A stretch of 64,000 nt of DNA, taken from positions 92,660 to 156,659 of the forward strand of contig CALVZQ010000004.1 in assembly GCA_944372585.1 (NCBI GenBank). Reading direction: 5' to 3'. Position numbers and translations under genes: made by a program. Source of the stretch: an uncultured Clostridia bacterium (GTDB lineage Bacteria; Bacillota; Clostridia; Christensenellales; UBA1242). Within the stretch, counting starts at the first letter, position 1. Each line of letters opens with the position of its first letter. The notes under the pieces were generated by a model that ran no database searches, was not told where the DNA came from, and saw only the letters and a list, made by a program, of their open reading frames with translations. This document shows positions 6,365 through 64,000 of the stretch, one piece after another.

Positions 6365-7642
6365 CTATGAAATAAAATTATTTTTGTGTAATATCTCCGG
6401 CAAGTCCCCCGCCCCGACGAACAACAACATCACTTTGTTTTTTTGTTTTTGAAGCAAAAATGTTTTCAAATCTTCAAAATTTTCAAAATATTTCGCATTT
6501 TTGTTTGTTTTTTGCACAATTTCTGTAAGTTGCAAAGCACTCAAACCATCTTCTGGTTTTTCTCTTGCAGAATATGTTCTGAAAAACAATGGCTCTTCAA
6601 CTTCTTGAAAAATTTTGACAAAATCGCTCAACAACAATTTTGTTCTCGAATATGTATGCGGTTGAAAGATTGTAATAATCTCTCTGTTTTTATAGATCTT
6701 CTTTGCCGACCTAATCGCTTTTGAAATTTCTGTTGGATGATGCGCATAATCACACACAACCGCATCAAAGAAAGGACAGCAAACTTTTTCAAATCTTGTG
6801 CTGACACCCATGTAACTTTCAAGTCCGAGTTTGATTAAACAATCATCAATTCCCAACTTTTTTGCAACCTGATAGGCATAAATACAATTTTGAGTGTTGA
6901 CATCCTCACATATGTTCAAATTTAAATCAAAGATTTTTTTGTCTTTTTCATAAAGACCAAATCTCAACCGCCCAAATTTGTCATGACGAACATTTTTTGC
7001 CTTTAAGTCATTCCTGTTGCCAATGACAAACTCGGATTGATCTTTAAATTTTTCAAATGACTTTAATTGATTTTGAAAGGTTTTAAAATAGTCCAAATGC
7101 TCTTTTTCAATGTTTGTCACAACTGAAATAAATGGTTTCAAAAAAAGAAAGTTGTCATGATATTCACATGCTTCAGTCACAAAGAACTCTTCATCTCCCA
7201 AATGGAAGTTCAGACCATCATCAAGTTTGTATCCCCCAAGATGCAAAGTTGGATTTTTTCCTGCGCACATCAAAATTTGATAAATCATTGCCGTTGTGGT
7301 TGTTTTTCCATGAGAACCTGCAACTGCAATCACTTTTTCATAGCCACATGCGATTTGTCCCAAAATTTTGCCACGTGATGACATTTTTTTACCATTTTCT
7401 TTCGCAAAGACAAACAATGGATTATCTTGTTTGATTGCTGATGAATAACAAATCTCGTCCGCTTGCAAAATTTTTTCTTCATTCAAAATATAATCAACAT
7501 CAATGCCATCTTTGTTTAAAATCTCAGTTCCCTTTCCAGAAAATTCGTCATAACCACCAACTTCAAAACCACGATGTTTGAGCATCACAGCAAGTGCTGA
7601 CATAGACACACCACCTATGCCTAAGAAATAATATTTTTTCAT
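6365..7642 (-). CDS. murC: UDP-N-acetylmuramate--L-alanine ligase MurC
   Basis: First amino-acid ligase of the peptidoglycan precursor pathway. The 425 residues begin MKKYYFLGIGGVSMSALA, the typical UDP-binding glycine motif of MurC, followed by the P-loop AVAGSHGKTTTTAM near residue 106, the CEYHDNF motif near 172 and DYAHHPTEI near 294. It is the first gene of the mur operon and is divergent from spoVG. There is no Shine-Dalgarno sequence before the ATG. Instead TATAAC lies six bases upstream with TTGTCA 18 bases further, which suggests a leaderless mRNA. All catalytic motifs are intact. Confidence 0.95.
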   Translation of the reverse strand: MKKYYFLGIGGVSMSALAVMLKHRGFEVGGYDEFSGKGTEILNKDGIDVDYILNEEKILQADEICYSSAIKQDNPLFVFAKENGKKMSSRGKILGQIACGYEKVIAVAGSHGKTTTTAMIYQILMCAGKNPTLHLGGYKLDDGLNFHLGDEEFFVTEACEYHDNFLFLKPFISVVTNIEKEHLDYFKTFQNQLKSFEKFKDQSEFVIGNRNDLKAKNVRHDKFGRLRFGLYEKDKKIFDLNLNICEDVNTQNCIYAYQVAKKLGIDDCLIKLGLESYMGVSTRFEKVCCPFFDAVVCDYAHHPTEISKAIRSAKKIYKNREIITIFQPHTYSRTKLLLSDFVKIFQEVEEPLFFRTYSAREKPEDGLSALQLTEIVQKTNKNAKYFENFEDLKTFLLQKQKNKVMLLFVGAGDLPEILHKNNFIS

Positions 7643-7648
7643 ATTTTG

Positions 7649-7678
7649 GTTATATGAATTTCAAAAAATCTTTGACAA
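7649..7678 (-). promoter_or_regulatory. Promoter of the murC operon, giving a leaderless mRNA
   Basis: Minus-strand -35 TTGTCA (7673-7678), 18-base spacer and -10 TATAAC (7649-7654). Only six bases separate the -10 from the murC ATG, so transcription should begin at or next to the start codon. No ribosome binding site exists in this stretch. Confidence 0.6.
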
Positions 7679-7692
7679 TATTGAAAAATCTT

Positions 7693-7720
7693 TTGCAATA
7701 AGAAACAATTATGATATAAT
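7693..7720 (+). promoter_or_regulatory. Promoter of spoVG
   Basis: Extended -10 TGATATAAT ending at 7720 with a weak -35 TTGCAA (7693-7698), spacer 16. The expected transcript begins near 7727 and carries a leader of about 40 bases with a ribosome site. It is back to back with the murC promoter. Confidence 0.6.
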
Positions 7721-7767
7721 TATTTCGACCGATAAAGGTTAATCTAAAAAAAGGAAGGTATGGAAAC

Positions 7768-8043
7768 TTGAAGATTACGGACATTAGAGTAAGACTTGTA
7801 AACAACGGCAACGACAAACTCAAAGCAGTTGCATCAATCACAATCGATGATGAACTCGTTGTTCATGACATCAAAGTCATCAACGGCAAAGATGGTTATT
7901 TTCTTTCAATGCCAAGCAGAAAAACTAACGAGGGAGAATTCAAAGACATTGTTCACCCAATCAAAACTGAAGTTAGAGAAATGCTTAAAGAAAAAATCCT
8001 TGCTGAATATGAAAAAGCACTTGCAAACGCAGAAAATGAATAA
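7768..8043 (+). CDS. spoVG: Septation/sporulation regulator SpoVG, TTG start
   Basis: Small site-specific DNA/RNA-binding regulator that in Bacillus and Listeria affects septation, sporulation and virulence genes. The 91 residues MKITDIRVRLVNNGNDKLKA... match the family throughout, including the ITIDDELVVHDIKVINGKDG core and the FKDIVHP segment. The only start that gives the conserved N-terminus is TTG at 7768, nine bases after AAGGAAGG. An ATG at 7760 lies between them and opens a three-codon frame (Met-Glu-Thr-stop) whose TGA overlaps the TTG, which could tune initiation. A strong terminator follows. The gene appears to be transcribed alone. Confidence 0.95.
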   Translation: MKITDIRVRLVNNGNDKLKAVASITIDDELVVHDIKVINGKDGYFLSMPSRKTNEGEFKDIVHPIKTEVREMLKEKILAEYEKALANAENE

Positions 8044-8056
8044 TTCGAGTGTTTAT

Positions 8057-8087
8057 AAAAAATCTACATTAATTTGTAGATTTTTTT
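8057..8087 (+). terminator. Intrinsic terminator of spoVG
   Basis: AAAAAATCTACA and TGTAGATTTTTT form a 12-base-pair stem around TTAATT, followed by T residues. It ends where the next gene's promoter begins. Confidence 0.85.
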
Positions 8088-8114
8088 GTTTCCTTTTCAA
8101 AATTTTTATATAAT
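8086..8114 (+). promoter_or_regulatory. Promoter of the split membrane protein gene, leaderless type
   Basis: TTGTTT (8086-8091), 17 bases, TATAAT (8109-8114), then six bases to the ATG at 8121. No ribosome site is present. Confidence 0.55.
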
Positions 8115-8120
8115 TAATAT

Positions 8121-8875
8121 ATGAACATCAAACAACATATCCATTCCTTGAAAGATTCTGACAAAAGAGTCAAAGTGATAACATTCATAACAATGTTATA
8201 TAATTTCTTTTGGGCAATAGGAAAAATTTTGTTTGGAGTTTTCATGCGTTCTTATCTCTACTGCATAAGTGGTGCATACACTCTGCTATTGGGATTTAGC
8301 AAAAAAGTTTTTGTTTCCAACCATAAAACAAAAAAAGAAATCAACCTTGAAACAAAGTCGTTGATCATTGGCATTCTGCTGGCAATCAGTGGAATGGCCT
8401 TTGGAATTTATATGGGCGGACTTTATATTTGGAGAATTGACTTTCAGTACAACATGATTTGGTCAATAACCATCGCACTTTGCTCCTTCGTGGAACTTGG
8501 AATCTCCATTCACAATCTAATTAAGGTCAGAAAAAAGGTGACATCTTGCTTCTCAGTCTAAGATGTTGCAACATTGGCTCTTCTTTGTTTGCAATGGTTA
8601 TGACACAAGTGGCTTTGCTCTCTGCAACTGGGACAGAAAACACCTATATGTACAATGCCACAACTGGTGTGATTGCAAGCATTCTTGTCATCTGTCTTGG
8701 TTTCTTTGTGATTGGCAAATCCGCTTATATGGAAAAACGGAAACAAACGGAAGACGAGACGAAAAAAGTTGGCAACAATAATGAAGAAAGTGAAAATTTA
8801 AATGATCTCACAAAAATAAGTGAAGAAAGTGAAAACCAAATGAAAAATGAGAAAAATAAAAAAGATGAAAATTAA
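8121..8875 (+). CDS. Polytopic membrane protein encoded in two frames (-1 shift at 8531-8537)
   Basis: I do not recognise a named family. The first frame (8121-8561, 146 residues) starts MNIKQHIHSLKDSD and has about four membrane segments, including FFWAIGKILFGVF and IIGILLAISGMAFGIYMGGLY. Its last residues (VTSCFSV) look random. The second frame (to 8875) continues with CCNIGSSLFAMVMTQVALL and GVIASILVICLGFFVIG, then a charged tail rich in Glu, Asn and Lys. Joined by a -1 shift at A_AAA_AAG they give a smooth 251-residue six-segment protein. Either the shift is programmed, or the gene is broken, or one base was lost in sequencing. The second frame has no ribosome site of its own. The gene has its own promoter and a terminator. 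Confidence 0.7.
8531..8566 (+). other. Candidate -1 ribosomal frameshift site with hairpin
   Basis: The heptamer A_AAA_AAG (8531-8537) is in the correct zero frame (AGA AAA AAG) and is the same slippery sequence used in E. coli dnaX. Three bases later ACATCTT (8541-8547) pairs perfectly with AAGATGT (8560-8566) around a 12-base loop. AAGG at 8523-8526 could act as an upstream ribosome-pairing stimulator. The -1 frame leads straight into the downstream open frame. Confidence 0.5.
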
Positions 8876-8890
8876 TTTCATCTTTTTTAA
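8858..8890. terminator. Bidirectional terminator between the membrane protein gene and ypeB
   Basis: GATGAAA and TTTCATC pair around ATTAA, flanked by A-runs and T-runs on both sides, serving the two convergent genes. Confidence 0.8.
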
Positions 8891-8895
8891 TTAAT

Positions 8896-10323
8896 TTACA
8901 TAAGTTTGCTTCCATCGTTTGTTTTAACAACTTTCAATATGTTCTCTTCAACATTTGTGTTTGCGTTGATGTAGATATAATAAGTTGAACCATTTCTTTC
9001 ACATTCAAACTCCCAACACAAAACCTCTCTGTTGTAGTCGAGTGGAGCCAAAACAAGTCTTTCATTCTTGATTGAGAAAGAGGTGTCAATGTTTGTCTTC
9101 GCCATTTCTGTTGTCACAGTTGCTCCTGAAATATCTCTGGAAGTATGGTTAATCCAGTAAGAAACTGCATCATAACCAATAACATTTCCATTCTCCAAAT
9201 CAACTTTCACTTTGACAAGGTCAGGATAAAGAATGATTCCATTTTGTTTTGGCGAAATGTTGAAATATGCTTGAGAATCTAGCTCCTCACTCCAAACAAT
9301 CTCAGCATTTTCCACACCATTTCCTTTTGCAAAATCAAGTGCAATCTTTTCTGCCTGTTGCATGGTTATGTTCTTAACATCAGAATCAACATGGCCACTG
9401 ACTGTCAAAATTTTTCCACCTATCTTTGTCACTTGAACATAAACCTTTTGATTGTCTGTATTCAACAAGACATAGTTATAAGTGCTGAACTTACCATTCG
9501 TTTGTCCTTGATATTGAAGATTGGAGATATTTTTGAAATATGAGTCCACAATCTTGTATGCTTCATCTTTTGATATCTCACTTCCAGTCAATCCTTTAAC
9601 TTTTTGGTTGACAACAGAATCAGAGAAAGGTCCGTCATAAATCATGGTTGGATATTCAGTATCATCAGATTTGATTTGTGCAAAATCTAGTGAAAAATCA
9701 TCATAATTACCATCAATATGATTACTTGCGTCCAAAATGCTGTAACCGTAGATCATTTTTTCGGACATTTGATTGAGATATTTTTTCATCTCCGTCAATG
9801 ATTCATGCATTTCATTGAGTGTATTTAAGTCGCTTTCGGTCAACTCTCCACCCTTTGCCACTTTTTCTTGCAAAGTCTGAGTATAGCCAGACATTTGATT
9901 GATGAATCTGACACTTTCAACAATGTTGTCACTGGAAAGTGGAAGAGCAGCAATGTTGCTTTGCATTTCTTTGGCACCTTGCGCAAGATCATTGAGCATT
10001 TTTGCTTGATAATCCTCACTGTTTGATGCAAGAAGTTTGCTTATGTTCATATCAGCCGTGTTGACAGTATCGACAAGTTCATAATAATTTTTCTTGTATA
10101 TGTTTTCAAGTTGCAGAGAATAACTGTTTGCCTGCGACATTGAAACCCCATATCCAATGCCAAAACCGATTGTACTGAGTCCCAACACCCCTGTCGCAAT
10201 TGAAAGTCCAATAACAGCACCTCTATATTTGTGCCTTACTGCTGAATTTCTCTTATCTTGAGTTTGGTTGGAATTTTTTACATTTTTGTTTTCAGTTTGA
10301 GCAATTTTCTTATCTTCTTTCAT
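8896..10323 (-). CDS. ypeB: Spore germination protein YpeB
   Basis: Partner of the cortex-lytic enzyme SleB; in Bacillus the two depend on each other for location in the dormant spore. The 475-residue protein has a short lysine/asparagine-rich cytoplasmic start, one membrane anchor (GLSIATGVLGLSTIGFGIGY, about residues 39-58), a long helical region to ~220, and PepSY-like repeats near residues 240-430, including SRDISGATVTTEMAK. The frame runs on to 10359, but ATG at 10323 with AGGAGGGG is the start. It lies 10 bases after sleB, so they are co-transcribed. Length fits the family. Confidence 0.93.
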   Translation of the reverse strand: MKEDKKIAQTENKNVKNSNQTQDKRNSAVRHKYRGAVIGLSIATGVLGLSTIGFGIGYGVSMSQANSYSLQLENIYKKNYYELVDTVNTADMNISKLLASNSEDYQAKMLNDLAQGAKEMQSNIAALPLSSDNIVESVRFINQMSGYTQTLQEKVAKGGELTESDLNTLNEMHESLTEMKKYLNQMSEKMIYGYSILDASNHIDGNYDDFSLDFAQIKSDDTEYPTMIYDGPFSDSVVNQKVKGLTGSEISKDEAYKIVDSYFKNISNLQYQGQTNGKFSTYNYVLLNTDNQKVYVQVTKIGGKILTVSGHVDSDVKNITMQQAEKIALDFAKGNGVENAEIVWSEELDSQAYFNISPKQNGIILYPDLVKVKVDLENGNVIGYDAVSYWINHTSRDISGATVTTEMAKTNIDTSFSIKNERLVLAPLDYNREVLCWEFECERNGSTYYIYINANTNVEENILKVVKTNDGSKLM

Positions 10324-10333
10324 AATCCCCTCC

Positions 10334-11017
10334 TTAAATTGCAAACACATGGTTGCCAATCACAACTGTTGTTGTCTTGCTGTATATCCATTTGTTTGTT
10401 GCAGTGCTTGCGTTATAGTAATACAATGCACCATAAGTAGGGTCCCAACCATTCAAAGCATCACGAGCGGCATTATATGCAGTTTGGTCAGGTTCGAGAT
10501 TGATTTGTCCGTCATTGACTGCCGTAAAAGCCCATGGCTGATAGATGACCCCTGCAATAGTATTTGGAAAATCAGGGCTTTCTACTCTGTTCAAAATAAC
10601 TGCTGCGACCGCAACTTGTCCAGTGTAACTTTCTCCACGGGCTTCAGCGTAAACACACTTGGCCAAAAGATATAAGTCACTGTTAGAAACCGAATTGTCA
10701 TCAGTTGAAGACAAGGTCATTCCAAGAGCCGCCGCCGTTTTTGGTCCAACAATTCCGTCAACAGAAAGTCCATTTTTGCTTTGGAAATATCTGACAGCCT
10801 TGCGTGTTAAATTTCCATAAATTCCATCGACATTGCCAGTGTAATATCCCCATCTTTTCAATTTTGTTTGAACAGTTCTTGTTTGTGAAGTGGTCAAGGC
10901 CGCTTCAACATATTCAATGTTTGGTTGTATGTAATTTGTCAAAACCACAGTAAGCGTTCCGATTGACATGATTGCAAACATAACTGCAAAAGTCAACGCA
11001 AATAATTTTTTCTTCAT
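10334..11017 (-). CDS. sleB: Spore cortex-lytic enzyme SleB
   Basis: Lytic transglycosylase that degrades muramic-lactam cortex during germination. The 227 residues contain an N-terminal membrane/signal segment (KLFALTFAVMFAIMSIG), a peptidoglycan-binding type 1 domain (about 47-103, with GYYTGNVDGIYGNLTRKAV and DGIVGPKTAAALG), and the Hydrolase_2 catalytic domain from ~115, with the predicted acid in YAEARGE near residue 130 and later YYYNASTATNKWIYSK. The start has AAAGGAGA. It is 11 bases after spoIIR and 10 before ypeB. The sleB-ypeB pairing is the common arrangement. Confidence 0.95.
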   Translation of the reverse strand: MKKKLFALTFAVMFAIMSIGTLTVVLTNYIQPNIEYVEAALTTSQTRTVQTKLKRWGYYTGNVDGIYGNLTRKAVRYFQSKNGLSVDGIVGPKTAAALGMTLSSTDDNSVSNSDLYLLAKCVYAEARGESYTGQVAVAAVILNRVESPDFPNTIAGVIYQPWAFTAVNDGQINLEPDQTAYNAARDALNGWDPTYGALYYYNASTATNKWIYSKTTTVVIGNHVFAI

Positions 11018-11028
11018 ATTTTCTCCTT

Positions 11029-11562: not shown

Positions 11563-11600
11563 AAATCCCTCACAAACGAATTTTTGTCTGAAAAATAATA

Positions 11601-13566: not shown

Positions 13567-13595
13567 TTGAAATAACATAATTGATATGTTATAAT
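13567..13595 (+). promoter_or_regulatory. Promoter of the P-loop kinase gene, leaderless type
   Basis: TTGAAA (13567-13572), 17 bases, extended -10 TGTTATAAT (TATAAT 13590-13595), then exactly six bases to ATG at 13602. This is the best example of the leaderless start pattern in the window. Confidence 0.75.
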
Positions 13596-13601: not shown

Positions 13602-14390
13602 ATGGATAAAAAAACAGAAATTTTGGAAAAATCAATAATACTCAACGGACCCATTGGAAGTGGAAAAAGCCTTTTGTCAAGAATTCTTGCAAGAAAACTT
13701 GGCTACCATGTGATTTCAACAGATTCTTTTAGGCACCTTCCAAGCAAAAAATATTTCCAAAGCAAATCTTTTGAGGATTTAACCGAGCAAGATAAAACTT
13801 CCTTGCAACTTAGGCAACACTTGCCAAATCTTCCAAACTATCAAGAGCTTGGTTTCAATCCACAAACTAGCGAAATGATAATGCGTCGCTTTGGAGCTGT
13901 TGCATGGCATTTCTATCAAAAACAATTTGAAACAAAACTTCTTTCAGAAATGTTTTCACAACTCCAAACCCCGAGCATAATTGATCTTGGTGGTGGAATG
14001 GGAATCTCTTTAGACAGAGATTACAAATATTTAGAGGAAAAAGCACGCGCTATCAATCCCAACTTGTTTAATGAATGTTTTCCATTGAAAAATTATATCG
14101 GTTTTGACAAGATTAAGAAACTTTTGGGACAATTCAAAAATGTTATCTATCTCAAACTTCCAAACAATTATTCTGAAAATGTGAAAAAAGCCTCTCAAGA
14201 CAGATTAAACCCCATTTTTCTCTCAACTGGACAATATCAAGAAACTGCCACTCAAACAATAAGTGTTCAAAATTTGATTTATCAAAATCAACCCAACTGG
14301 GACAAAGCAGAGAAACTTGCAGATGAAATCATTTCAAGCTGTGGGCTTGAGCAGTGCAAACATATTGAACGAAAAAGACACCTCACTTGA
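13602..14390 (+). CDS. P-loop kinase, shikimate-kinase-like
   Basis: A 262-residue protein with a clear Walker A, IILNGPIGSGKSLLSRILA, near residues 12-30, followed by LGYHVISTDSFR, as in small-molecule kinases of the shikimate/gluconate kinase type. Further on are IDLGGGMG near residue 128 and FKNVIYLKLP near 185. At 262 residues it is longer than shikimate kinase (about 170), with a helical insert near residues 55-110. The substrate is unknown; isolation from aroma genes argues against a true AroK. An upstream TTG is in frame, but the -10 overlaps it, so ATG at 13602 must be the start. Confidence 0.7.
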   Translation: MDKKTEILEKSIILNGPIGSGKSLLSRILARKLGYHVISTDSFRHLPSKKYFQSKSFEDLTEQDKTSLQLRQHLPNLPNYQELGFNPQTSEMIMRRFGAVAWHFYQKQFETKLLSEMFSQLQTPSIIDLGGGMGISLDRDYKYLEEKARAINPNLFNECFPLKNYIGFDKIKKLLGQFKNVIYLKLPNNYSENVKKASQDRLNPIFLSTGQYQETATQTISVQNLIYQNQPNWDKAEKLADEIISSCGLEQCKHIERKRHLT

Positions 14391-17995: not shown

Positions 17996-18574
17996 TTATA
18001 TCAAGTTTTCAATATATTCAAGAATTTTTTCTCTTCCGAAACCGCTTTCTGAGGAATAACCTTGAACCAATTCTTTCCTGACACCAAGTGTTTTTGCAAT
18101 CATATTGCAAGCTTGTGGAATTTTGCTCTTTGCAATTTTGTCAACTTTTGTTGCAACAACCATATAAGGAATTTGATAAACATTCAAAAATTCAATCATC
18201 ATCTTGTCAAGTTCACTAGGTTCATGCCTGCAATCGACCAAAACAAAAACGGTTTTCAAACTTTGCGACAATGTCAAATATTTTTCCATAAGCCCCGCCC
18301 AGTTTGCAATGTGCTTATGTCCAGTTTTTGCATATCCATAACCTGGCAGGTCAACAATTCTGAATTTGTCATTGACAACAAAATAATTGATCATTTTGGT
18401 AAGTCCCGGAGTTGAAGATGTTTTGGCAAGATTTTTTTGTCCGCAAAGAGAATTTATGAGAGAAGATTTTCCCACATTGCTTCTTCCAACAAAGGCAAAT
18501 TCCACCACCTCATCTTTCAAAATATTCTCTTCTTTCACAACACTTGTGAGATATTTTGCACTGACTATCTTCAT
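17996..18574 (-). CDS. ysxC: Ribosome biogenesis GTPase YsxC/EngB
   Basis: Essential GTPase needed for assembly of the large ribosomal subunit. The 192 residues show all G motifs: G1 GRSNVGKSSLIN near 29, G2 STPGLTKMINYF near 53, G3 DLPGYGYA near 74, G4 ATKVDK near 140 and a terminal SSESGFG. Normal length. There is no ribosome site: the bases between TATAAT and ATG are AACTCC only, so the mRNA is probably leaderless. It is often found next to lon or clpX; here it stands alone, divergent from the hemolysin III gene. Confidence 0.95.
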   Translation of the reverse strand: MKIVSAKYLTSVVKEENILKDEVVEFAFVGRSNVGKSSLINSLCGQKNLAKTSSTPGLTKMINYFVVNDKFRIVDLPGYGYAKTGHKHIANWAGLMEKYLTLSQSLKTVFVLVDCRHEPSELDKMMIEFLNVYQIPYMVVATKVDKIAKSKIPQACNMIAKTLGVRKELVQGYSSESGFGREKILEYIENLI

Positions 18575-18580: not shown

Positions 18581-18608
18581 ATTATAACAAAAAACAAAGA
18601 AAATTCAA
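18581..18608 (-). promoter_or_regulatory. Promoter of ysxC, leaderless type
   Basis: Minus-strand extended -10 TGTTATAAT (TATAAT 18581-18586) lies six bases before the ATG. The best -35 is TTGAAT (18603-18608) at 16 bases. Confidence 0.65.
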
Positions 18609-19490: not shown

Positions 19491-19522
19491 AAAAAGAAGA
19501 CTGAAACTCAGTCTCCTTTTTT
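19491..19522. terminator. Bidirectional terminator between hemolysin III and lipoprotein genes
   Basis: AGACTGA and TCAGTCT pair around AAC, flanked by an A-run and a T-run, between converging genes. Confidence 0.65.
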
Positions 19523-22500
19523 ATACTCTGCTTCCACTAGGCATTGTCACAGCAAATCTGACTCCTTTCAAAGTGTCCAACCATGTCGTCTTCTTTTCTC
19601 CAGCTTCTGTGATTATCTGTCCATTGCCAAGTCCTGTTCCCAGATTTCTTGTCCAATAGTCCACAAATTCGTCTGTTCCACATCCAAGCAACAGACAAAC
19701 CATGTCACTTGCCTTAGCTGAAAAGTCTGATGTATAGTCATCTATCTCTTCAATTGATGCCACTCTTATTCCACTTAGTGATGATGACACACTTTCAACT
19801 TTGTCTTGTTGCCCAGCATCTCCAAATCTGTAGTTATATCCTGATACCGTCCCATATGACACTTCTGCGTAAAAATTGGTGGTCGAAGCTCCGTTGTTGA
19901 ATCTTGATGTGTTGGTGTATAGGTCACTGCTTGTGTATGCCCAACCTTCTGTCACGTTGCTTGCCTCAACTGCCCCAATCATCAATATTCTGTCACTTAC
20001 CACTGAGAAGTCCGACTTGTATGTTCCATATGTGCTCCAACCACTTGGATACGATGTGCTGGACACTCCATAGTTGCTCAACCGCCACCTGATTGGTTCA
20101 ACTTCAAACCAATAATATGTTCCACTGTTGAATGTGAATGTTCCATTGCTCATTGTGAGTGTCTGTGTGCTGGTTGCCTGCACCCTTGCATATCGGTTGC
20201 TGTTGTATGTGTATAGGTATATATATACAGTTGATGAACCATTGTTATATTGTATTCTTCCGCTTTGTGTTGTATTCCCATTGCTATATGCAGTTGTGAG
20301 TGTGCTGTTCATTGATGTTCCAACATAACTTTGTGGAAACACTCCATTTTCAAAATACCAATACCTCTCTGTGCTGTCATATTTCAATTCAAAAGATGAC
20401 GTCACCTTGAAATATAAATAACATGTATATGTTCCTGTCGCAGTTGGCGTAATAGTTGTTGACCGATTGCTTGGTATTGTCGTGCTGCTCGTGGTCACTC
20501 CAAGATAGACATATCCACTATTAGCTGTTGGCGTGAATGTGACAGCTCTGCTTAATAAAGCATTTGTTGCAACTGTTGTCGCTGACGCACTCGTCACACT
20601 CACAGATGAAGATTGTGTTGCTGTGTTGTTATTGTCATAATAATACCGAACTGTTGTTGTTCCACCAGTCACCGAATTGCTGAATGTCGAACCATTTGTT
20701 GACGTCTTGATCTGAACTCTGATTGTTGCCGTTCTTGGCGTCCAATCTGCATACAGCGTGTCACTTGCGTTTGTGGAATAACTTCCACCCGAACTGTAAG
20801 CCGTTCCCGTTCCAGCACTGTTTGTGTTCCAACCATTTGCTGTATAACTCGTTTTTGTCAAATTGTTTGTCCCAAGCGTCAAAGCTGTTCCATGTATTTT
20901 ATATTTATAAGTATCTGATGTCGGCAAATCTCCACTTCCACCATTGGAATTGTATGTTATTGTGTACCGCTGTTTCACATACACATACAATGTATCATTC
21001 GAATCTGGTGTCCAAGAATATGTGTAAGAATCCGAAGATGAGTCATAGAGTTTTGTGTATGTGCTTGTTGTTGGGTTGCTTCCTGTCCTCATGTAATAAT
21101 CATACGATCCATTGGACAACGTGATGGTGACACTCTGCGCTGTCGTGGAGTATGCATGACTTATTGTGGTGGATCCACCTGTGGAAACTGCAGTGCCATT
21201 AACTTCCAGATTTGTTGTGTTGCTTTGCCGTGTCGTTCCTCCATAATACCGGACGGTCAAAGTGTGCGTATCAATTTCAGCCCAAGCATAATATGTGTTT
21301 GATGTGTCAACTGTGAAGGTGTAAGTCGAACTGGTGCTCACTGCAGATGCCGAGCTGCTGTTTGTTGTCGTCCATTTGGAAAAGGAATAATGAGTGTCAG
21401 CCGTAACGGCAATGGTATATTCTGAGCCATACGTGGCAGTGACCTCTTTGTATCTTCCAATTGAGTTTGAATACCAACTTGTGGCAGGTTGGTTGATGTC
21501 CACAATTCCAGTCATTGCGTACACCCTTATTGAATATGAGTTCACTTCCCATTGTGCTATGGCTTCATAACTGCCGGTAATATCATTGTTGTCTCTATAT
21601 TCGGTGCTGAGTGTTATATCGCTCCATGGAATTGTGTCTCCAGCATCATAAATATCAAATGAAGACCCCATTGTTTCACCAATGTACTGCAACCTCCAAC
21701 CAGTAAATGTATAACCCGTTCTTGTTGGAATTGTGTCTGATAATGTCACAGGGCGTCCAGCATAAAATGATTGATCTCCTGGAGCCCCGCTTCCACCATT
21801 GGCATCATACTCTAAGGTCAAATTACGCCTAATTTTTATGTACCAATTCCCAGACATAGAGGTCCCCACTGATGAACTCGGTGCAGATGTTGCTGTTTGA
21901 CTATTTCTATAAATATAAGAATATGTCGAGGTTCCAGTTGTTTGTCTGCTGGTTTCAAACGAAGAACTTGTATTAATACTCCATCTTGTGTAACCACCTG
22001 ATGCTATTGCGTATAATCTTGCATATCTTTGAACACCCCAAAAATAATTGTACTTAAAATACACCAAATTGCTTGCGTATGTAGAATTTGAATTGCCGCC
22101 ATTTACTGAATACCCATACGCAGCTGTTGTGGTTGGAGTGTTTCCCCAAGTTTGGGTGGTTCCATGGTTTGATCCACCATCTCCCTCATACCAATAAATT
22201 GTAAATCTGCCCGCATGAATGCTATTGCTGTTTAATTCAGAATAACTTGTCCCTGTGGCGCCACTATTCCATGGCATAAATGCAGTAATTCGCACCGAGA
22301 AATCTACGGCATCTTGTGCCAGTATGTCGTCATCTTCGTTTTCTTCATTGTTGTTATCATCTTCAGTGTCCGATCCGTCTTCACCAGGATTTTCCATCTC
22401 TCCATCTTCAGGAGTTTCCAAACCACCCTCTGATTGAGAACAACCAGCAAACAAAAATGCACCCCCTCCAATCAGAGAGAATCCGCATAATATCAAAAAA

Positions 22501-22523
22501 AGTGCGCACAAAAACTTTTTCAT
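19521..22523 (-). CDS. Large surface lipoprotein with InlB-type B-repeats
   Basis: A 1000-residue exported protein. It begins MKKFLCALFLILCGFSLIGG and has a lipobox LFAGC near residues 20-24, so it is probably a lipoprotein. A very acidic linker (residues 30-70) follows. The middle holds Listeria InlB/Flg_new-like B-repeats, for example YDANGGSGAPGDQSFYAG and GYTFTGW near 250, and ITYNSNGGSGDLPTSD with YADW near 515-590. The C-terminal ~270 residues, with YWFEVEPIRWRLSN, look like the DUF6273 type. Composition is rich in Ser, Thr, Tyr and Asn, and bases are less AT-rich than the neighbours, a sign of a fast-evolving or transferred gene. The start has no ribosome site. Confidence 0.8.
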   Translation of the reverse strand: MKKFLCALFLILCGFSLIGGGAFLFAGCSQSEGGLETPEDGEMENPGEDGSDTEDDNNNEENEDDDILAQDAVDFSVRITAFMPWNSGATGTSYSELNSNSIHAGRFTIYWYEGDGGSNHGTTQTWGNTPTTTAAYGYSVNGGNSNSTYASNLVYFKYNYFWGVQRYARLYAIASGGYTRWSINTSSSFETSRQTTGTSTYSYIYRNSQTATSAPSSSVGTSMSGNWYIKIRRNLTLEYDANGGSGAPGDQSFYAGRPVTLSDTIPTRTGYTFTGWRLQYIGETMGSSFDIYDAGDTIPWSDITLSTEYRDNNDITGSYEAIAQWEVNSYSIRVYAMTGIVDINQPATSWYSNSIGRYKEVTATYGSEYTIAVTADTHYSFSKWTTTNSSSASAVSTSSTYTFTVDTSNTYYAWAEIDTHTLTVRYYGGTTRQSNTTNLEVNGTAVSTGGSTTISHAYSTTAQSVTITLSNGSYDYYMRTGSNPTTSTYTKLYDSSSDSYTYSWTPDSNDTLYVYVKQRYTITYNSNGGSGDLPTSDTYKYKIHGTALTLGTNNLTKTSYTANGWNTNSAGTGTAYSSGGSYSTNASDTLYADWTPRTATIRVQIKTSTNGSTFSNSVTGGTTTVRYYYDNNNTATQSSSVSVTSASATTVATNALLSRAVTFTPTANSGYVYLGVTTSSTTIPSNRSTTITPTATGTYTCYLYFKVTSSFELKYDSTERYWYFENGVFPQSYVGTSMNSTLTTAYSNGNTTQSGRIQYNNGSSTVYIYLYTYNSNRYARVQATSTQTLTMSNGTFTFNSGTYYWFEVEPIRWRLSNYGVSSTSYPSGWSTYGTYKSDFSVVSDRILMIGAVEASNVTEGWAYTSSDLYTNTSRFNNGASTTNFYAEVSYGTVSGYNYRFGDAGQQDKVESVSSSLSGIRVASIEEIDDYTSDFSAKASDMVCLLLGCGTDEFVDYWTRNLGTGLGNGQIITEAGEKKTTWLDTLKGVRFAVTMPSGSRV

Positions 22524-22529: not shown

Positions 22530-22558
22530 ATGATATATTATTTTTAGCAAAATAGCAA
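22530..22558 (-). promoter_or_regulatory. Promoter of the lipoprotein gene, leaderless type
   Basis: Minus-strand TTGCTA (22553-22558), 17 bases, TATCAT (22530-22535), then six bases to ATG at 22523. Confidence 0.5.
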
Positions 22559-53203: not shown

Positions 53204-54055
53204 TTAAGATTTGTCATTTTTTTTGAAAATTTCATTAAAATCATAAACTTTTCCGTGATATTTCAAACCAACCAAAGTTTCAATGTTGACATTGTGAATG
53301 CTTTTGAAAATATGATTTTCTACTTCTGGAATTTGCTTTTTCAACTGCCTAATCAAGTTTTTCACTTCAAGTCTGGCAGAAGGAGAAATTTCATCTTCCG
53401 ACAATTGACAATTTTCAGTGAAACGGCAAGCACATTGCAAAAATTTTAAGTCATTGTAATTCTTCCAGGCAATGATATCATCTTCATGAACACAAAAAAG
53501 CGGTCTGATGAGTTGCATGCCTTCAAAATTTTGAGAACGCAGTTTTGGAAGCATAGCTTGAATTTGCGCCCCATAGAGCATTCCCATCAAAGTCGTTTCA
53601 ATCACGTCACTATAGTGGTGTGCGAGCGCAATCTTGTTGCACCCTCGTTTTTGTGCTTCATTATAGAGATATCCTCTTCTCATTCTTGCACAGAGATAGC
53701 ATGGAGATTTTTCAATGTTGACAACACTGTCAAAAATGTTAGTTTCAAAAATATCCAATGGAATTTCAAGCATTTTTGCATTTGTTTCAATCTGTTTTCT
53801 GTTTTCGGCATTATAGCCTGGATCCATGCATAAAAAAACAAGGTCAAATTTCACTTCAGAGATCCTTTGCAACATTTGCATAAGTTTTGCAAGAAGCATG
53901 GAGTCTTTTCCGCCCGAAATACAGACTGCAATCTTGTCACCTTCTTGAATCAATTCATACCTCTTGAGTGCCAAAATAAATTTTGACCAAATTCCTTTTC
54001 TAAATCTTTTGTTTATGCTTTGTTCAACACTTTGTGCCTTTGTCAATTCTTTCAT
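53204..54055 (-). CDS. TtcA-like tRNA thiolation protein (PP-loop ATPase)
   Basis: A 283-residue PP-loop protein of the TtcA family, which adds sulfur to cytidine 32 of tRNA. The PP-loop is AVCISGGKDSMLLAKLMQ near residue 44. The two Fe-S cysteine pairs are in SPCYLCARMRRGYLY near 120 and LQCACRFTENCQL near 205. IALAHHYSDVIETTLMG near 140 is the second ATP-side motif. The real start is ATG at 54055, although the frame continues to 54070. No ribosome site: TATCAT lies six bases before the ATG, suggesting a leaderless mRNA. Confidence 0.85.
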   Translation of the reverse strand: MKELTKAQSVEQSINKRFRKGIWSKFILALKRYELIQEGDKIAVCISGGKDSMLLAKLMQMLQRISEVKFDLVFLCMDPGYNAENRKQIETNAKMLEIPLDIFETNIFDSVVNIEKSPCYLCARMRRGYLYNEAQKRGCNKIALAHHYSDVIETTLMGMLYGAQIQAMLPKLRSQNFEGMQLIRPLFCVHEDDIIAWKNYNDLKFLQCACRFTENCQLSEDEISPSARLEVKNLIRQLKKQIPEVENHIFKSIHNVNIETLVGLKYHGKVYDFNEIFKKNDKS

Positions 54056-54061: not shown

Positions 54062-54090
54062 ATGATACAACTTTCAAAGCAAAAAAACAA
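54062..54090 (-). promoter_or_regulatory. Promoter of the TtcA-like gene, leaderless type
   Basis: Minus-strand TTGTTT (54085-54090), 17 bases, TATCAT (54062-54067), six bases, ATG. Confidence 0.5.
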
Positions 54091-54111: not shown

Positions 54112-54228
54112 TTACAAATCATCTGCATCTTGCACAGGAACTTCATATTCATCTGAAGGTGTTCCTGTGTATGACCCCAATGGGTCGTTTTTGCTTTCGT
54201 ATTCATTTTTTTTCTTTCTCTTCTTCAT
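54112..54228 (-). CDS. Conserved-looking 38-residue microprotein with DPLGSYTG motif
   Basis: Read directly from ATG at 54228 to TAA at 54112. The protein is a basic lead MKKRKKKNEYESK, then NDPLGSYTGTPSDEYEVP, then VQDADDL. The DPxGSYTG and PVQDADDL parts are, from memory, a recurrent end of tiny Clostridia proteins; I know no function for them. It lies after the second degV's terminator, so it must have its own promoter: CATAAT stands six bases before the ATG, with no ribosome site and no good -35. The polar, acidic C-terminus suggests a binding tail rather than an enzyme. Confidence 0.7.
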   Translation of the reverse strand: MKKRKKKNEYESKNDPLGSYTGTPSDEYEVPVQDADDL

Positions 54229-54264
54229 GTTTTTATTATGTCGAATCAAAAAGAAAAAATACAT

Positions 54265-57822: not shown

Positions 57823-57852
57823 ATGATTTTTTTGCTTATTTTTTTGATATTT

Positions 57853-60147: not shown

Positions 60148-60175
60148 CACAACCTCTTTTCTGATTTTAATTCTT

Positions 60176-60209
60176 CGTATACAATTTTGGAAAAGAGATT
60201 ATTGTCAAA
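60176..60209 (-). promoter_or_regulatory. spoIIE promoter with overlapping Spo0A-box
   Basis: Minus-strand TTGACA (60203-60208) and TATACG (60176-60181) are separated by 21 bases, too far for ordinary sigma A activity. The opposite strand over the -35 reads TGTCAAA (60203-60209), which fits the 0A-box TGTCRAA. B. subtilis spoIIE and spoIIG use just this layout. Confidence 0.65.
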
Positions 60210-60238
60210 ATTTAACTTTTAATGTTTGATTTTGACTG

Positions 60239-60928
60239 TTAAAACAAAAAATAAAGCAAAATTCCGCAAAGAACATTATAGCAAAAGTTTTGCATATATT
60301 CTTTGTCCTGCAAAAGAGCCTCCTCTTCTGGATTAGACAAAAACCCACATTCAATCAAAATACTTGGATTTTCTGTGCAGTTAAGAATGTAATAATCTCC
60401 CGTTTTTGCTGTTTTCTTGGCATATTCAACATTTTTGTTCAAAACCAACTGCACCTTATCAGCCAAAACCTGTCCACTCTCAGAACCGTCAGCATAAAAA
60501 ACTTGGGCTCCTCTTGTTTGAGAAGATTGATAACTGTTCATGTGAATGCTTACAACAATATCGGGATTGGTACCTTCAATAATTTGCCTGCGTTTCTCCA
60601 TTTCGCTTCGCTTTTTGTTGCTGGCAAAAGGAGAATAAAGTCCATTCATATCACTGCGTGTCAACACAACTTTAAAACCATATTGTTCACACAAATTTTT
60701 CAAAGCCAAAGAATACTGCAAATTCAAATAACTTTCTGTGACACCAGTTTCCTTTCCAACCGCCCCGCCATCTTTCCCGCCGTGCCCTGCATCAATGACA
60801 ATGGTATATAACGCTTTCGGCGAACTCGTCGCCCTAACCACATAGCAAACGCCAACCACCGAGCAAATCAAAATCACGCTTACCAAAATAACACACAATG
60901 TGCGTCTTTTTATTGTTAAGAATTTCAT
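60239..60928 (-). CDS. cwlD: N-acetylmuramoyl-L-alanine amidase CwlD
   Basis: Zinc amidase of the Amidase_3 family, needed to make muramic lactam in the spore cortex, the structure that SleB later recognises. The 229 residues have a signal anchor (LCVILVSVILICSVVGVCYVV, about 11-31), then VIDAGHGGKDGGAVG near 44 with the first zinc histidine, a glutamate in ESYLNLQ, VVSIHMNSYQSS near 125 and the catalytic glutamate in ILIECGFLSNPEEE near 190. No ribosome site is visible and no convincing -10 sits six bases away, so the start mechanism is unclear. Confidence 0.92.
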   Translation of the reverse strand: MKFLTIKRRTLCVILVSVILICSVVGVCYVVRATSSPKALYTIVIDAGHGGKDGGAVGKETGVTESYLNLQYSLALKNLCEQYGFKVVLTRSDMNGLYSPFASNKKRSEMEKRRQIIEGTNPDIVVSIHMNSYQSSQTRGAQVFYADGSESGQVLADKVQLVLNKNVEYAKKTAKTGDYYILNCTENPSILIECGFLSNPEEEALLQDKEYMQNFCYNVLCGILLYFLF

Positions 60929-60976
60929 ATAATAACATATTTTTATTCTTTACTTTTTATAACAAAAAAGAGGATA

Positions 60977-61753
60977 TTAATACCCCCAATTTTCTAACTT
61001 AAACCCTTTTGAATTTATTTCTCCATAATCACCATATAATTTAAAATGCACACTTTTCCCATTTAACCCAACAACAGAAAAATCTGATTTTAGAATATGG
61101 GCAAAATTATATTGTGTTTTCGCTATTTTATCATCAACGTACCAAACTATTTTATTAGAAATATCACTTTTAACTATTATGTTTCCAGAATAATTATCTA
61201 TTTCTATATTTAAAATTCTAGGTAATAAATCAATTGCATTTTTTAAATTTTCCAAATCATTTTCACTATAAGGGTTTGATATCTTTAATCTTGTTATATC
61301 TGGAATAGATATTTTTTCTCCACCAAATTTTGCTAGATCTAATTTCATTTTCCAAAAATAGATTTCATTTCTTTCATTGAATAAAATTTCAGCTTGTGTT
61401 AAATGAGCAGCAAATTCAAATTCATTACAATCATTAACTTGCATAAAATGCTTTTTTGCTTCTTCTTCAAATCCTAATCGTCTTGAATTTCTAAAATGTT
61501 TAACACCGTGACACCTACTGCAAATTGCGATTATATCCTTTAATGTTTGAGTTTTATTTTTAATATCAAATTCCCATTCTTCGTGAACATCAAGGTCATC
61601 ACTTTCATAACCACATATTTCGCATTTTCCATTTGCTCTTTTTAAAGCAAACTCTCTTAATATATTCCAATCTTTTTTAGGTAATATTATACTTAAATCA
61701 TTTTTCCAAGAACCTCGTGGAAGTAGCTCTATTGCAAGTTTTAATTCGTTCAT
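60977..61753 (-). CDS. HNH endonuclease domain protein
   Basis: A 258-residue protein with an N-terminal HNH zinc-finger nuclease-like module: NGKCEICGYESDDLDVHEEWEFD near residues 41-63 and DIIAICSRCHGVKHF near 75-89. The two CxxC pairs and the HEEW/HxxxKH histidines give the betabeta-alpha-metal fold. Residues 100-258 form a separate region (NEIYFWKMKLDLAKFGGEKI, NIEIDNYSGNIIVKSDIS) with no known domain. Start ATG at 61753 with AGGTAGGT lies seven bases after the CPCC-DUF4417 gene. It is last in an accessory operon, so a role with those genes is likely but unproven. Confidence 0.8.
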   Translation of the reverse strand: MNELKLAIELLPRGSWKNDLSIILPKKDWNILREFALKRANGKCEICGYESDDLDVHEEWEFDIKNKTQTLKDIIAICSRCHGVKHFRNSRRLGFEEEAKKHFMQVNDCNEFEFAAHLTQAEILFNERNEIYFWKMKLDLAKFGGEKISIPDITRLKISNPYSENDLENLKNAIDLLPRILNIEIDNYSGNIIVKSDISNKIVWYVDDKIAKTQYNFAHILKSDFSVVGLNGKSVHFKLYGDYGEINSKGFKLENWGY

Positions 61754-61760
61754 AACACAC

Positions 61761-62861
61761 CTACCTAGATGGATAAAATTCGCCAGCAAGATATTTTCTC
61801 ATAAATTCTTCCATTCCCATTTTAGCAATAAGTTCTTCTTTATTAAATGGACTAACAACTTTTATATTCCCTTTCATTTCTGGGAAAGCCTCTCCGTAAA
61901 TTATGACTGCAGAAGGCTTTATCACTTCAAGCATTTTATTGTAACTCTTTAAAATTTCTTGTTTGTATTGTTCTCTTCGATATGTTGATATTGCCACAAC
62001 AGAGCCCTCTTCAATCCCATCAAAGCAAAAATCATAACTTTCTTCTCCTGCACAACATACTGTTGGGATCACAATTTTTCCCATTTTTTGCCAAAAAGCC
62101 CCACACCACCTGTTTTTAAATGTGTTATATATTTGTACTGCTTTCGGCATATCCCAATATAAACTAAATTCAGGACTTAAAAGTGCATAATATTGATCTA
62201 GTTTTTCCATAGCTTTTTCTGGTTTATCAAATACACTTTCAAAGTTCCAATCATATGTGAAAAAATGAATAGTTTTATCTTTATTTTCTTCATCATTAGG
62301 TTTAGTTTTGATATATCCCCACAAGTCGATTTTATCTAGATCAATTTTTTGTTTTTTAATAATAGGCATGCCATACTTCCCAACCATTTTAAATTGATTT
62401 CTCACAAGTTTCTGCTTTTTATACGATTTTTCAAATTCATAATCGCTTTCCTCGTCATTACTTGTATTTGGCTTTTCCTGCTGTCTTTCTAATTCTCTTT
62501 TCCTCCTATTCTCTTCTACTTGTTGCATTTTTACATCATATTCAGGATCTATTGATCTAAAATATTCCAAGTTTGCTTCTTCAAAATTTTCTTTATAGAA
62601 ATTATCAGCCTTATCAAAGATATAAAATAACTCGTTTTGATGATTTTTTAATATATCTTCTTTATTTTCCTTCCAGAATTGTTTATATTGATTTAAACTC
62701 ATATCATTTGCTCCACCTGCAAAATTTGGTTCATCATTTTGAACAGCATCATCTTCCCAACCACAAACTTTACAAACTGCGTATTCGTGTTCAACTTCAC
62801 CTAACCCGCAGACTTTACATTTGCGAGGATATTTTAAATTATTATTGATTTTTTCGCTCAT
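61761..62861 (-). CDS. CPCC-type cysteine-rich domain fused to DUF4417
   Basis: A 366-residue fusion. Residues 13-60 form a CPCC-like zinc domain: KCKVCGLGEVEHEYAVCKVCGWEDD, followed by NEPNFAGGANDMSL in its typical form. A charged coiled region (70-170) comes next. The C-terminal 190 residues match DUF4417: VQIYNTFKNRWCGAFWQKMG near 245, IPTVCCAGEESYDFCFDGI near 265 and AVIIYGEAFPE near 320. CPCC domains are common in small immunity-like or accessory genes; DUF4417 is frequent in phages and mobile DNA. AAAGGAG precedes the ATG. It lies 12 bases after the toxin-like gene. Confidence 0.8.
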   Translation of the reverse strand: MSEKINNNLKYPRKCKVCGLGEVEHEYAVCKVCGWEDDAVQNDEPNFAGGANDMSLNQYKQFWKENKEDILKNHQNELFYIFDKADNFYKENFEEANLEYFRSIDPEYDVKMQQVEENRRKRELERQQEKPNTSNDEESDYEFEKSYKKQKLVRNQFKMVGKYGMPIIKKQKIDLDKIDLWGYIKTKPNDEENKDKTIHFFTYDWNFESVFDKPEKAMEKLDQYYALLSPEFSLYWDMPKAVQIYNTFKNRWCGAFWQKMGKIVIPTVCCAGEESYDFCFDGIEEGSVVAISTYRREQYKQEILKSYNKMLEVIKPSAVIIYGEAFPEMKGNIKVVSPFNKEELIAKMGMEEFMRKYLAGEFYPSR

Positions 62862-62873
62862 TTTATTCTCCTT

Positions 62874-63194
62874 TTATAACCATTCATATCCATATTTCAA
62901 AAATAAGTTCTCAAAGTATTTCCCATCGGATCTTGGTGGATAATATGTAATAATTTTGCCATCTCTAGAAACCATCATAAATTCATTTGTGCTTTCTCTA
63001 TATCGGTATATCGTTCCATCTTTATCAGTAAATTCTCGAATATTGAGATCTTTATCATTTAAAAACTCAACTGCCTTTTTTGAATATTTGTATGGGTATC
63101 CTTTTAAACCAAATTGCGAGGCGTGTTTAAAATGCTCAACTTCATTTTCAGGCGATGTCCAATATTTTGCATTCTCACTCGGTCCTTTTTCCAT
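62874..63194 (-). CDS. Small protein resembling polymorphic-toxin C-terminal domains
   Basis: A 106-residue protein. I see the pattern EHFKHASQFGLKGYPYKYSKKAVEFL, then FTDKDGTIYRYRESTNEFMMV and SRDGKIITYYPPRSDGKYF. The sequence HFxxHxxxFG...NEFxxxxxDGKIxTYYxP is what many RNase-type toxin tips of RHS/CDI proteins look like, but no catalytic set can be proved and it has no secretion part. A regulatory or phage role is possible. ATG at 63194 comes 13 bases after AGGAG; in between a two-codon frame, ATG ATA TAA, ends in TAATG over the start, suggesting re-initiation. First gene of the operon. Confidence 0.55.
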   Translation of the reverse strand: MEKGPSENAKYWTSPENEVEHFKHASQFGLKGYPYKYSKKAVEFLNDKDLNIREFTDKDGTIYRYRESTNEFMMVSRDGKIITYYPPRSDGKYFENLFLKYGYEWL

Positions 63195-63244
63195 TATATC
63201 ATCTTTTCTCCTTATTCTAATAAAAAATTTTCGACTTTTAACAA

Positions 63245-63277
63245 AAAAGTTTGTAAAGAATCTTCTCACAAACTTTT
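63245..63277 (-). terminator. Hairpin with T-run in the leader of the accessory operon
   Basis: AAAAGTTTGT (63245-63254 on the plus strand) pairs with ACAAACTTTT (63268-63277); on the minus strand TTTTTTG follows. Lying between promoter and first gene, it could be an attenuator. Confidence 0.5.
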
Positions 63278-63299
63278 ATAGAAAAATATTAAGCCAGAA

Positions 63300-63328
63300 A
63301 TTTTGCAAAATTCAAGTTTATATGTCAA
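63300..63328 (-). promoter_or_regulatory. Promoter of the toxin-like/CPCC-DUF4417/HNH operon
   Basis: Minus-strand consensus -35 TTGACA (63323-63328), 17 bases, and a weak -10 CAAAAT (63300-63305). Confidence 0.5.
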
Positions 63329-63380
63329 TATATTTTATACTGTCCTAACTTTGATAAAGTAAATTTAAAAGAAAATTAGT

Positions 63381-63409
63381 TTTAAAATGATAAATAAATC
63401 TGTTATAAT
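63381..63409 (+). promoter_or_regulatory. Promoter of the truncated right-edge gene, leaderless type
   Basis: Extended -10 TGTTATAAT (TATAAT 63404-63409), -35 TTTAAA (63381-63386) at 17 bases. ATG follows after seven bases, with no ribosome site. Confidence 0.6.
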
Positions 63410-63416
63410 CAAAAAT

Positions 63417-64000
63417 ATGAGAATAACAGTTAAAAATTTAAACAAATTATACGCGTCTGCATTTGAAAAAATGGAGAATATGTCAAAATTCCTTGGCAAA
63501 AATTGTGTTGACCACGCGTTAGATTTTCATTATGGACATAGAATAAAAATTGGTAAACAATTTACAAATGAATTATATCCGATTCCTCTTATCCGCTTTA
63601 AAATAAAAAGAATAAAAACGGAGACTTTTTTTGATGTCTATACAAACAAAGACTATATAGGATATATCAAACTTTATCCAAACAAAGAAGAAATTTTATC
63701 TCTTGATTTAAAAGTTTTTGCAAACCTCAAATATCTTATATATGGATACCATTATCAGCAAGAACTTTACAATTCTGAAGATTTAGAAGAAATAAAAAAC
63801 AATATCGAAAAATCAAAAGATACAAGATTTATTATCTATGCCGACTTTAAAAACCTTGAACAAATTTATAGTTTGGTGGAAAAATTGATAATAAAGCCAT
63901 CTCAAAGGTTTTCAACAACAAATTACAAATGCGAGTGCGGACATTATATTACAATTGATACATATAACGGCACATGCCCTATTTGTGGAAAAGATAGTCC
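63417..64000 (+). CDS. Hypothetical protein with zinc-ribbon end, cut by the window edge
   Basis: An open frame from ATG at 63417 to the window edge, 194 codons without stop. It starts MRITVKNLNKLYASAFEKM. Residues 1-160 are lysine-rich with alternating strands and helices, including LKVFANLKYLIYGYHYQQ and FIIYADFKNLEQIYSLVEKL, which might be a small repeat or receptor-like fold. Near the edge, YKCECGHYITIDTYNGTCPICGK is a C-x-C-G...C-P-x-C-G zinc ribbon. I do not recognise the family. It is divergent from the toxin-like operon, at 222 bases, and may belong to the same accessory region. Confidence 0.7.
   Translation, partial: MRITVKNLNKLYASAFEKMENMSKFLGKNCVDHALDFHYGHRIKIGKQFTNELYPIPLIRFKIKRIKTETFFDVYTNKDYIGYIKLYPNKEEILSLDLKVFANLKYLIYGYHYQQELYNSEDLEEIKNNIEKSKDTRFIIYADFKNLEQIYSLVEKLIIKPSQRFSTTNYKCECGHYITIDTYNGTCPICGKDS

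What the first reader, a model, noticed from the sequence alone, without database searches (positions are those of the whole stretch)
7642..63417. A set of genes with leaderless-type starts: -10 hexamer six bases before ATG and no ribosome site
Seen directly at eight genes: murC (TATAAC, 7649-7654), 8121 (TATAAT), 13602 (TATAAT), ysxC 18574 (TATAAT), lipoprotein 22523 (TATCAT), TtcA-like 54055 (TATCAT), microprotein 54228 (CATAAT) and 63417 (TATAAT). The gap to ATG is 6,6,6,6,6,6,6,7, and seven have a -35-like element at 16-18 bases. Nearly all other genes have clear AGGAG-type sites. Leaderless mRNAs are well known in Actinobacteria and Deinococcus but are seldom described as a regular class in endospore-forming Firmicutes. 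The fixed spacing is hard to explain by AT-richness alone.
Basis: partly seen in the sequence, partly recalled or inferred. Interest (0 to 1): 0.78.

Follow-up and report, generated by a model that had tools for sequence, protein, structure and literature searches.

The report
Conserved leaderless genes in gut Clostridia
Some genes of this small gut bacterium appear to be copied into messenger RNA that begins exactly at the start codon, with no ribosome-binding leader; the sequence pattern is solid and shared with its relatives, but it is a known way of starting genes, found in a group where it was thought rare.

Summary
TATAAT-like hexamers lie exactly 6 bases before ATG in 26 of 399 genes of a 464-kb sample of this genome; each other gap from 0 to 12 gives about 3.6. 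In the window it is 8 of 67 genes against 0.75. A scan without a preset motif of 91 non-SD starts recovers TATAAT at -12 to -7 and TTG at -35. The class is seen before ATG only, rarely with an SD, and seldom close behind a same-strand gene. By best hit in a same-genus genome, 9 of 10 such genes are leaderless-type there too, against 3 of 115 others. Exact sites at gap 6 vs gap 9: 46 vs 8 here; 2.2-2.6-fold excess in six families of the order, weaker in others; no pooled excess in 198 other genomes of the phylum (6030 vs 5882). Best reading: SigA promoters that start transcription on the A of ATG, for roughly 6% of genes beside an SD majority. This kind is known (streptococci 8.6-9%). Examples vary: ysxC is well supported; murC lacks SD in relatives but its -10 form is not kept; the TtcA-like case is private; the 38-aa ORF is weak. 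No 5' ends were measured.

The parts
7649..7654 (-). -10-like TATAAC, gap 6 to murC ATG (7640-7642)
   Evidence: of 24 relatives with a usable start, 21 have CATA at -13/-14 and no SD, 0 have TATAAT (<=1 mismatch) at gap 6
7673..7678 (-). -35-like TTGTCA of murC, spacer 18
   Evidence: a TGTCAA-type element recurs in many relatives with divergent spoVG, so it may serve spoVG instead
6365..7642 (-). murC, leaderless-type start
8086..8091 (+). weak -35 TTGTTT, spacer 17
   Evidence: 3 mismatches
8109..8114 (+). TATAAT, gap 6 to ATG 8121
8121..8561 (+). 146-aa ORF, no Pfam match, leaderless-type start
13567..13572 (+). -35 TTGAAA, spacer 17
13590..13595 (+). TATAAT, gap 6 to ATG 13602
13602..14390 (+). 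262-aa protein, weak P-loop (AAA/kinase) matches below the Pfam cut-offs
18581..18586 (-). TATAAT, gap 6 to ysxC ATG
   Evidence: leaderless-type in 9 of 30 family loci examined, own included
18603..18608 (-). -35 TTGAAT, spacer 16
17996..18574 (-).
22530..22535 (-). TATCAT, gap 6 to ATG 22523
22553..22558 (-). -35 TTGCTA, spacer 17
19521..22523 (-). 1000-aa protein with Flg_new repeats
54062..54067 (-). TATCAT, gap 6 to ATG 54055
   Evidence: not conserved in the family
54085..54090 (-). weak -35 TTGTTT, spacer 17
   Evidence: 3 mismatches
53204..54055 (-). PP-loop (TtcA-like) protein
54235..54240 (-). CATAAT, gap 6 to a 38-aa ORF 54112-54228; weak case
   Evidence: no -35 with fewer than 4 mismatches
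63404..63409 (+). TATAAT, gap 7 to ATG 63417; gene cut by contig end
6362..6367 (-).

Best explanation
About 6% of the genes of this clostridial genome are leaderless. A SigA-type promoter (TTG-type -35 starting at -35, often TG before the -10, TATAAT at -12 to -7) is placed so that transcription would start on the A of the ATG. The mRNA then begins 5'-AUG, and translation would start without an SD, presumably by a 70S or IF2-favoured route. Shown here from sequence: the promoter geometry, the fixed spacing, the ATG restriction, the lack of SD, and the conservation in a relative. Inferred: the actual 5' ends, the sigma factor and the route of initiation. Most genes keep SD-led starts, and orthologs of one gene (ysxC) are leaderless-type in some genera and SD-led in others.
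For: Fixed-gap peak: 26 of 399 genes against about 3.6, and 30 against 1-9 with no gene caller. De novo words TATAAT at gap 6 (11 seen; expectation floored at 0.3) and TTGC at -35 (9 seen, 0.84 expected) among 91 non-SD starts. No peak before GTG/TTG starts or at 2374 internal ATGs. TTG-type -35 in 11 of 26 gap-6 cases vs 27 of 143 other-gap cases, p 0.011. 1 of 26 within 40 bp behind a same-strand gene vs 116 of 371 others, p 0.0015. Best-hit orthologs in G027: 9 of 10 vs 3 of 115, Fisher p 1.4e-10. Gap-6 peak without a gene caller in G027 (39 vs 2-10) and in small samples of families f31 (5 vs 0-1) and f6 (4 vs 0-1); none in G030, G286, G339. Whole-genome counts in order and phylum.
Against: No RNA data. 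Only 11 of 26 have a clear TTG-type -35. 15 of 26 have a same-strand gene upstream, so read-through leadered transcripts may also exist. 2 of 25 leaderless-type genes also have an SD-like start nearby. Orthologs were best hits, not reciprocal, and in 2 of the 9 matches the gap-6 ATG lies 21-24 bases inside the aligned start. With called genes, the peak is weaker in G027 (12 of 374; at most 6 at other gaps 0-12) and slight in G109 (5 vs up to 4 of 114). The f16 sample is equivocal (3 vs 0-3). In murC relatives the element is CATA one or two bases off the usual register and 0 of 24 meet the gap-6 rule. The TtcA-like case is not conserved. The three start-anchored control genomes have 42-51% GC, not 35%.
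Confidence: 0.9

Rival explanations
1. AT-richness and chance: TATAAT-like words are common in a 35% GC genome.
For: Background hits occur at all gaps, and exact sites also occur away from called starts (24 sites at gap 6 in 464 kb, 11 of them at called starts).
Against: Sharp peak at a single gap; no peak at internal ATGs or before GTG/TTG starts; 198 other genomes of the phylum give 6030 vs 5882 pooled, the best single one 75 vs 46, p 0.005 uncorrected; a genome with 58.6% GC (G079, family f6) still shows 4 vs 0-1.
Confidence: 0.01
2. An AT-rich or Kozak-like upstream translation element, as in Bacteroidota, rather than a promoter.
For: Kozak-like upstream sequences without SD are reported in Flavobacterium and other bacteria (PMC6847099, title and start of abstract in the listing).
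Against: The word is TATAAT with a TTG triplet at promoter spacing and TG before it; genes are seldom close behind a same-strand gene.
Confidence: 0.05
3. The promoters are real but serve as secondary starts; the working mRNA is leadered from upstream, as reported for potentially leaderless sites of Clostridium phytofermentans.
For: 15 of 26 have a same-strand upstream gene; PMC5171806 passage.
Against: SD is mostly not kept at these starts (2 of 25 have one nearby), unlike C. phytofermentans, where a typical RBS is retained; 11 of 26 lack a same-strand upstream gene.
Confidence: 0.1

Closest known systems
Leaderless transcripts of streptococci (S. pyogenes, S. agalactiae)
   Same: A minority class beside SD genes in low-GC Bacillota; 8.6% in S. 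pyogenes, 9% in S. agalactiae and S. pneumoniae; 81% of the S. pyogenes ones shared with S. agalactiae (PMC6431027, abstract and passages).
   Different: Streptococci are Bacilli and their starts were mapped by dRNA-seq; here the host is an uncultured clostridial lineage and the evidence is sequence only.
Leaderless genes with Pribnow-box signal in bacteria (Zheng et al. 2011, PMC3160421; passages)
   Same: Same signal (TATAAT just upstream of the start), with TG before the box in several low-GC genomes.
   Different: In Firmicutes that survey says they concentrate in Lactobacillales and Mycoplasma (56 of 209 genomes, mean 4.2%, up to 16.6%); words beginning 'clostridi' have 0 occurrences in its main text.
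Genomes predicted to use leaderless transcription by GeneMarkS-2 (as told in PMC9581028, passages)
   Different: The passages name Mycobacterium and Actinobacteria; whether this order was among them I did not see.
Potentially leaderless starts in C. phytofermentans and C. difficile
   Same: Clostridial hosts.
   Different: 4% of one TSS class, generally with another upstream start and a kept RBS (PMC5171806, passages); 15 genes in C. difficile (PMC7438776, passage).

Membership tests
Leaderless genes with SigA/sigma-70-type promoters | -10 hexamer centred about 10 bases upstream of the start codon, with fixed spacing | tested here: met
   Peak at gap 6; as a class, not for every gene
Leaderless genes with SigA/sigma-70-type promoters | No Shine-Dalgarno site | tested here: met
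   2 of 25 leaderless-type genes have an SD-like start nearby
Leaderless genes with SigA/sigma-70-type promoters | -35 element at 16-18 bases | tested here: inconclusive
   11 of 26 vs 27 of 143 at other gaps; TTG enriched at -35 de novo; no TTG-type hexamer at 54228, 63417 and 6355
Leaderless genes with SigA/sigma-70-type promoters | First gene of its transcription unit | tested here: inconclusive
   1 of 26 within 40 bp of a same-strand gene vs 116 of 371 others, but 15 of 26 do have a same-strand gene upstream
Leaderless genes with SigA/sigma-70-type promoters | mRNA 5' end at the A of AUG | not testable with these tools
   needs dRNA-seq or 5'-RACE
Leaderless genes with SigA/sigma-70-type promoters | Translated from the 5'-terminal AUG | not testable with these tools
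   needs ribosome profiling or a reporter

The most novel reading that the evidence does not exclude
One clostridial order of gut bacteria keeps an old, selectively maintained leaderless regulon of housekeeping genes (DNA repair and recombination, tRNA/rRNA modification, ribosome assembly, cell wall) beside normal SD genes. Genes switch between the two modes over evolution, and the class may be translated preferentially under stress or during sporulation.
Probability: 0.15. Interest if true: 0.7.

Novelty: new member of a known kind. Interest (0 to 1): 0.5.

Why it matters
It extends regular leaderless gene expression to a lineage of uncultured gut Clostridia, where RNA studies of two cultured Clostridia found it uncommon. 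Gene callers that expect SD sites may misplace these starts. The ysxC series, in which the same gene is leaderless-type in some genera and SD-led in others, makes the evolutionary switch between the two start modes testable.

Tried and rejected
A general alternative -10 (CATA), suggested by murC relatives, was sought at 91 non-SD starts: CATA is seen 1 time at gap 9 and 3 times at gap 10, against 0-4 at the other gaps 0-29, so no general motif is evident; the gene after murC (6355) and its G109 best hit also have CATA nearby, not followed. A divergent start codon as the reason for CAT upstream of murC was considered; in the window and a few relatives the reading frame soon stops (read by eye), so it was dropped. 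Loss of ribosomal protein S1 as the cause: S1 domains are present, four of them in one 370-aa frame. The anti-SD could not be read, because the 16S match stops near a contig end. Rows dropped: of 38 rows, seven GTG/TTG rows, one ATG row with an SD and one ATG row 474 bases upstream of the coding start were left out, leaving 29 for the ortholog list; 26 of these 29 were given to Pfam, not the 38-aa ORF, one gene that crosses two stretches, and one of 1663 aa. One search counted exact gap-6 sites in 14 of the 27 genomes behind the MurC loci (17-56 per genome against 0-20 for the reversed pattern) without a gap control, so it is not used as evidence. Literature: searched the open library; (leaderless + Christensenellales) found 0 papers, and I saw no report of a leaderless class in this order in the listings shown, which for searches were cut.
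Full report
Where the window lies. It is contig 4, bases 92660-156659, of an 11-contig, 1,121,691-base genome, 97.8% complete; the window has 35% GC. The 27 MurC relatives found (34-66% identity) come mostly from metagenome assemblies titled uncultured Clostridia bacterium, with one each titled uncultured Christensenella sp., Candidatus Caccovivens faecavium and Mageeibacillus sp.. NCBI places Caccovivens in Eubacteriales incertae sedis. That the order is Christensenellales in GTDB is recalled, not from a call. The genome encodes Spo0A over its cut-off, a sigma-G-like factor below its curated cut-off (370.9 of 457 bits) and a germination-protease homolog, so sporulation is plausible.

The observation. 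The eight hexamers and gaps are as stated. A gene caller that uses only coding statistics, and no upstream signal, called 403 genes in 464 kb (window plus 20 stretches). Among 273 coding-chosen ATG starts, TATAAT (at most one mismatch) occurs 25 times at gap 6, but 4, 1 and 0 times at gaps 5, 7 and 8. Allowing any ATG near the called start, 26 of 399 genes have it at gap 6, and the mean over gaps 0-5 and 7-12 is 3.58; further out, at gaps 16-24, counts rise to 5-16 each, as expected of leadered promoters. GTG/TTG starts show no peak (7 at gap 6; 1-9 at the other gaps 0-12), nor do 2374 internal ATGs (32 at gap 6; 23, 24 and 29 at gaps 3, 9 and 12). Without any gene caller, 30 ORF-opening ATGs lie at gap 6 against 1-9 at gaps 2-5 and 7-12. 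A positional word scan of 91 non-SD ATG starts finds TATAAT at gap 6 (11 seen; expectation floored at 0.3) and TTGC at gap 31, that is, at -35 (9 seen, 0.84 expected). In the window alone it is 8 of 67. The roughly 25 genes above background in 464 kb scale to about 60 in the genome, or about 6%; the scaling is my estimate.

Who the genes are. Besides six window proteins, 20 proteins of the sample were scanned and 19 have Pfam matches at 1e-5. The gene names are my reading of those matches: a tRNA/rRNA uracil-5-methyltransferase, RecD2, VanW-like, VTT/DedA-like, YetF-like, Dus, DNA polymerase III delta', YgjP-like, an integrase-family recombinase, RuvC, RsfS, an RsmD-type methylase, a tRNA pseudouridine synthase, an ATP:guanido phosphotransferase, PAP2, a calcineurin-like phosphoesterase, a uracil-DNA glycosylase, a germination protease and a glycosyltransferase. 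Repair, RNA modification and ribosome assembly are prominent; no enrichment test was made.

Conservation. Of 387 classified genes, 125 had a best hit in the held two thirds of G027 (same genus). Of 10 leaderless-type genes, 9 are leaderless-type there too and one has an SD; of the other 115, 3 are leaderless-type. The hits are not reciprocal, and two of the nine rest on an ATG 21-24 bases inside the aligned start. Protein identities of the nine run from 54 to 75%, while the printed upstream stretches differ except for the promoter elements and the ATG. For YsxC, 30 loci (of 39 genomes searched; loci were capped at 30) give 9 leaderless-type (8 without SD, own included), 1 possible, 14 SD-led and 6 neither. 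For the TtcA-like gene, 30 loci gave 22 usable ones, some of them distant relatives; 2 are leaderless-type, own included, and 2 more are possible, so that case looks private. For murC, 24 of 27 relatives had a usable start: 21 carry CATA at -13 or -14 and no SD, and 0 meet the gap-6 TATAAT rule. They lie in two gene contexts (divergent spoVG, or a same-strand gene just upstream), and three pairs are near-identical upstream. So murC lacks an SD in most relatives, but its promoter is not shown to be of the same type.

Distribution. Exact TATAAT-N6-ATG against TATAAT-N9-ATG, both strands: own genome 46 vs 8; 151 genomes of the order, own included, 4911 vs 3090. Six well-sampled families have ratios of 2.2-2.6 (f31, f3, f14, f6, f16, and f1, the window's own; f1 without the window's genome is 296 vs 148). 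Families f7, f24, f13, f9, f18 and f10 have weaker excesses of 1.5-1.8, while f30, f32, f23, f15, f4 and f12 lie between 0.87 and 1.04. In 198 other genomes of the phylum, none marked as of the same order, the totals are 6030 vs 5882. Tests without a gene caller: G027 39 at gap 6 against 2-10 at other gaps, G054 5 vs 0-1, G079 4 vs 0-1, G015 3 vs 0-3 (equivocal); G030, G286 and G339 show no peak. With called genes, G027 has 12 of 374 and G109 5 of 114 at gap 6, a weak signal.

Mechanism. A -35 at -35 and a -10 at -12 to -7 put the expected transcription start on the A of ATG. The ATG restriction, the lack of SD (2 of 25 have one nearby), and the scarcity close behind same-strand genes (1 of 26 vs 116 of 371) fit leaderless mRNAs. 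S1 domains are present and most ATG starts keep SD-like sites (193 of 273), so this is a second mode, not a loss of the first. The 5' ends and the 70S route are inferred.

Known context. Leaderless genes in Firmicutes were placed mainly in Lactobacillales and Mycoplasma (PMC3160421, passages). Streptococci have 8.6-9% and keep them across species (PMC6431027, abstract and passages). Two cultured Clostridia have few (PMC5171806; PMC7438776; passages). A later survey predicted leaderless transcription in 21.6% of bacterial species (told in PMC9581028, passages), and I did not see whether this order was among them. I found no paper on a leaderless class in this order in the open library searched, but the kind itself is well known.

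Noticed in passing
window 7640-7700 and loci L026-L051: murC carries a CATA element at -13/-14 with no SD in 21 of 24 usable relatives, in two gene contexts; it does not look like a standard SigA -10.
   Followed up: partly
G000:C4:78171-79709, C7:48107-48811, L022:8963-9718: Spo0A, sigma-G-like and neighbouring sigma-factor-like matches and a germination-protease homolog in a 1.12 Mb genome: a possible very small spore former.
   Followed up: partly
loci L127-L156: ysxC is leaderless-type in some genera and SD-led in others of one family.
   Followed up: partly
window 8060-8088: An inverted repeat followed by a T-run after spoVG lies just upstream of the promoter of the 8121 ORF.
   Followed up: no
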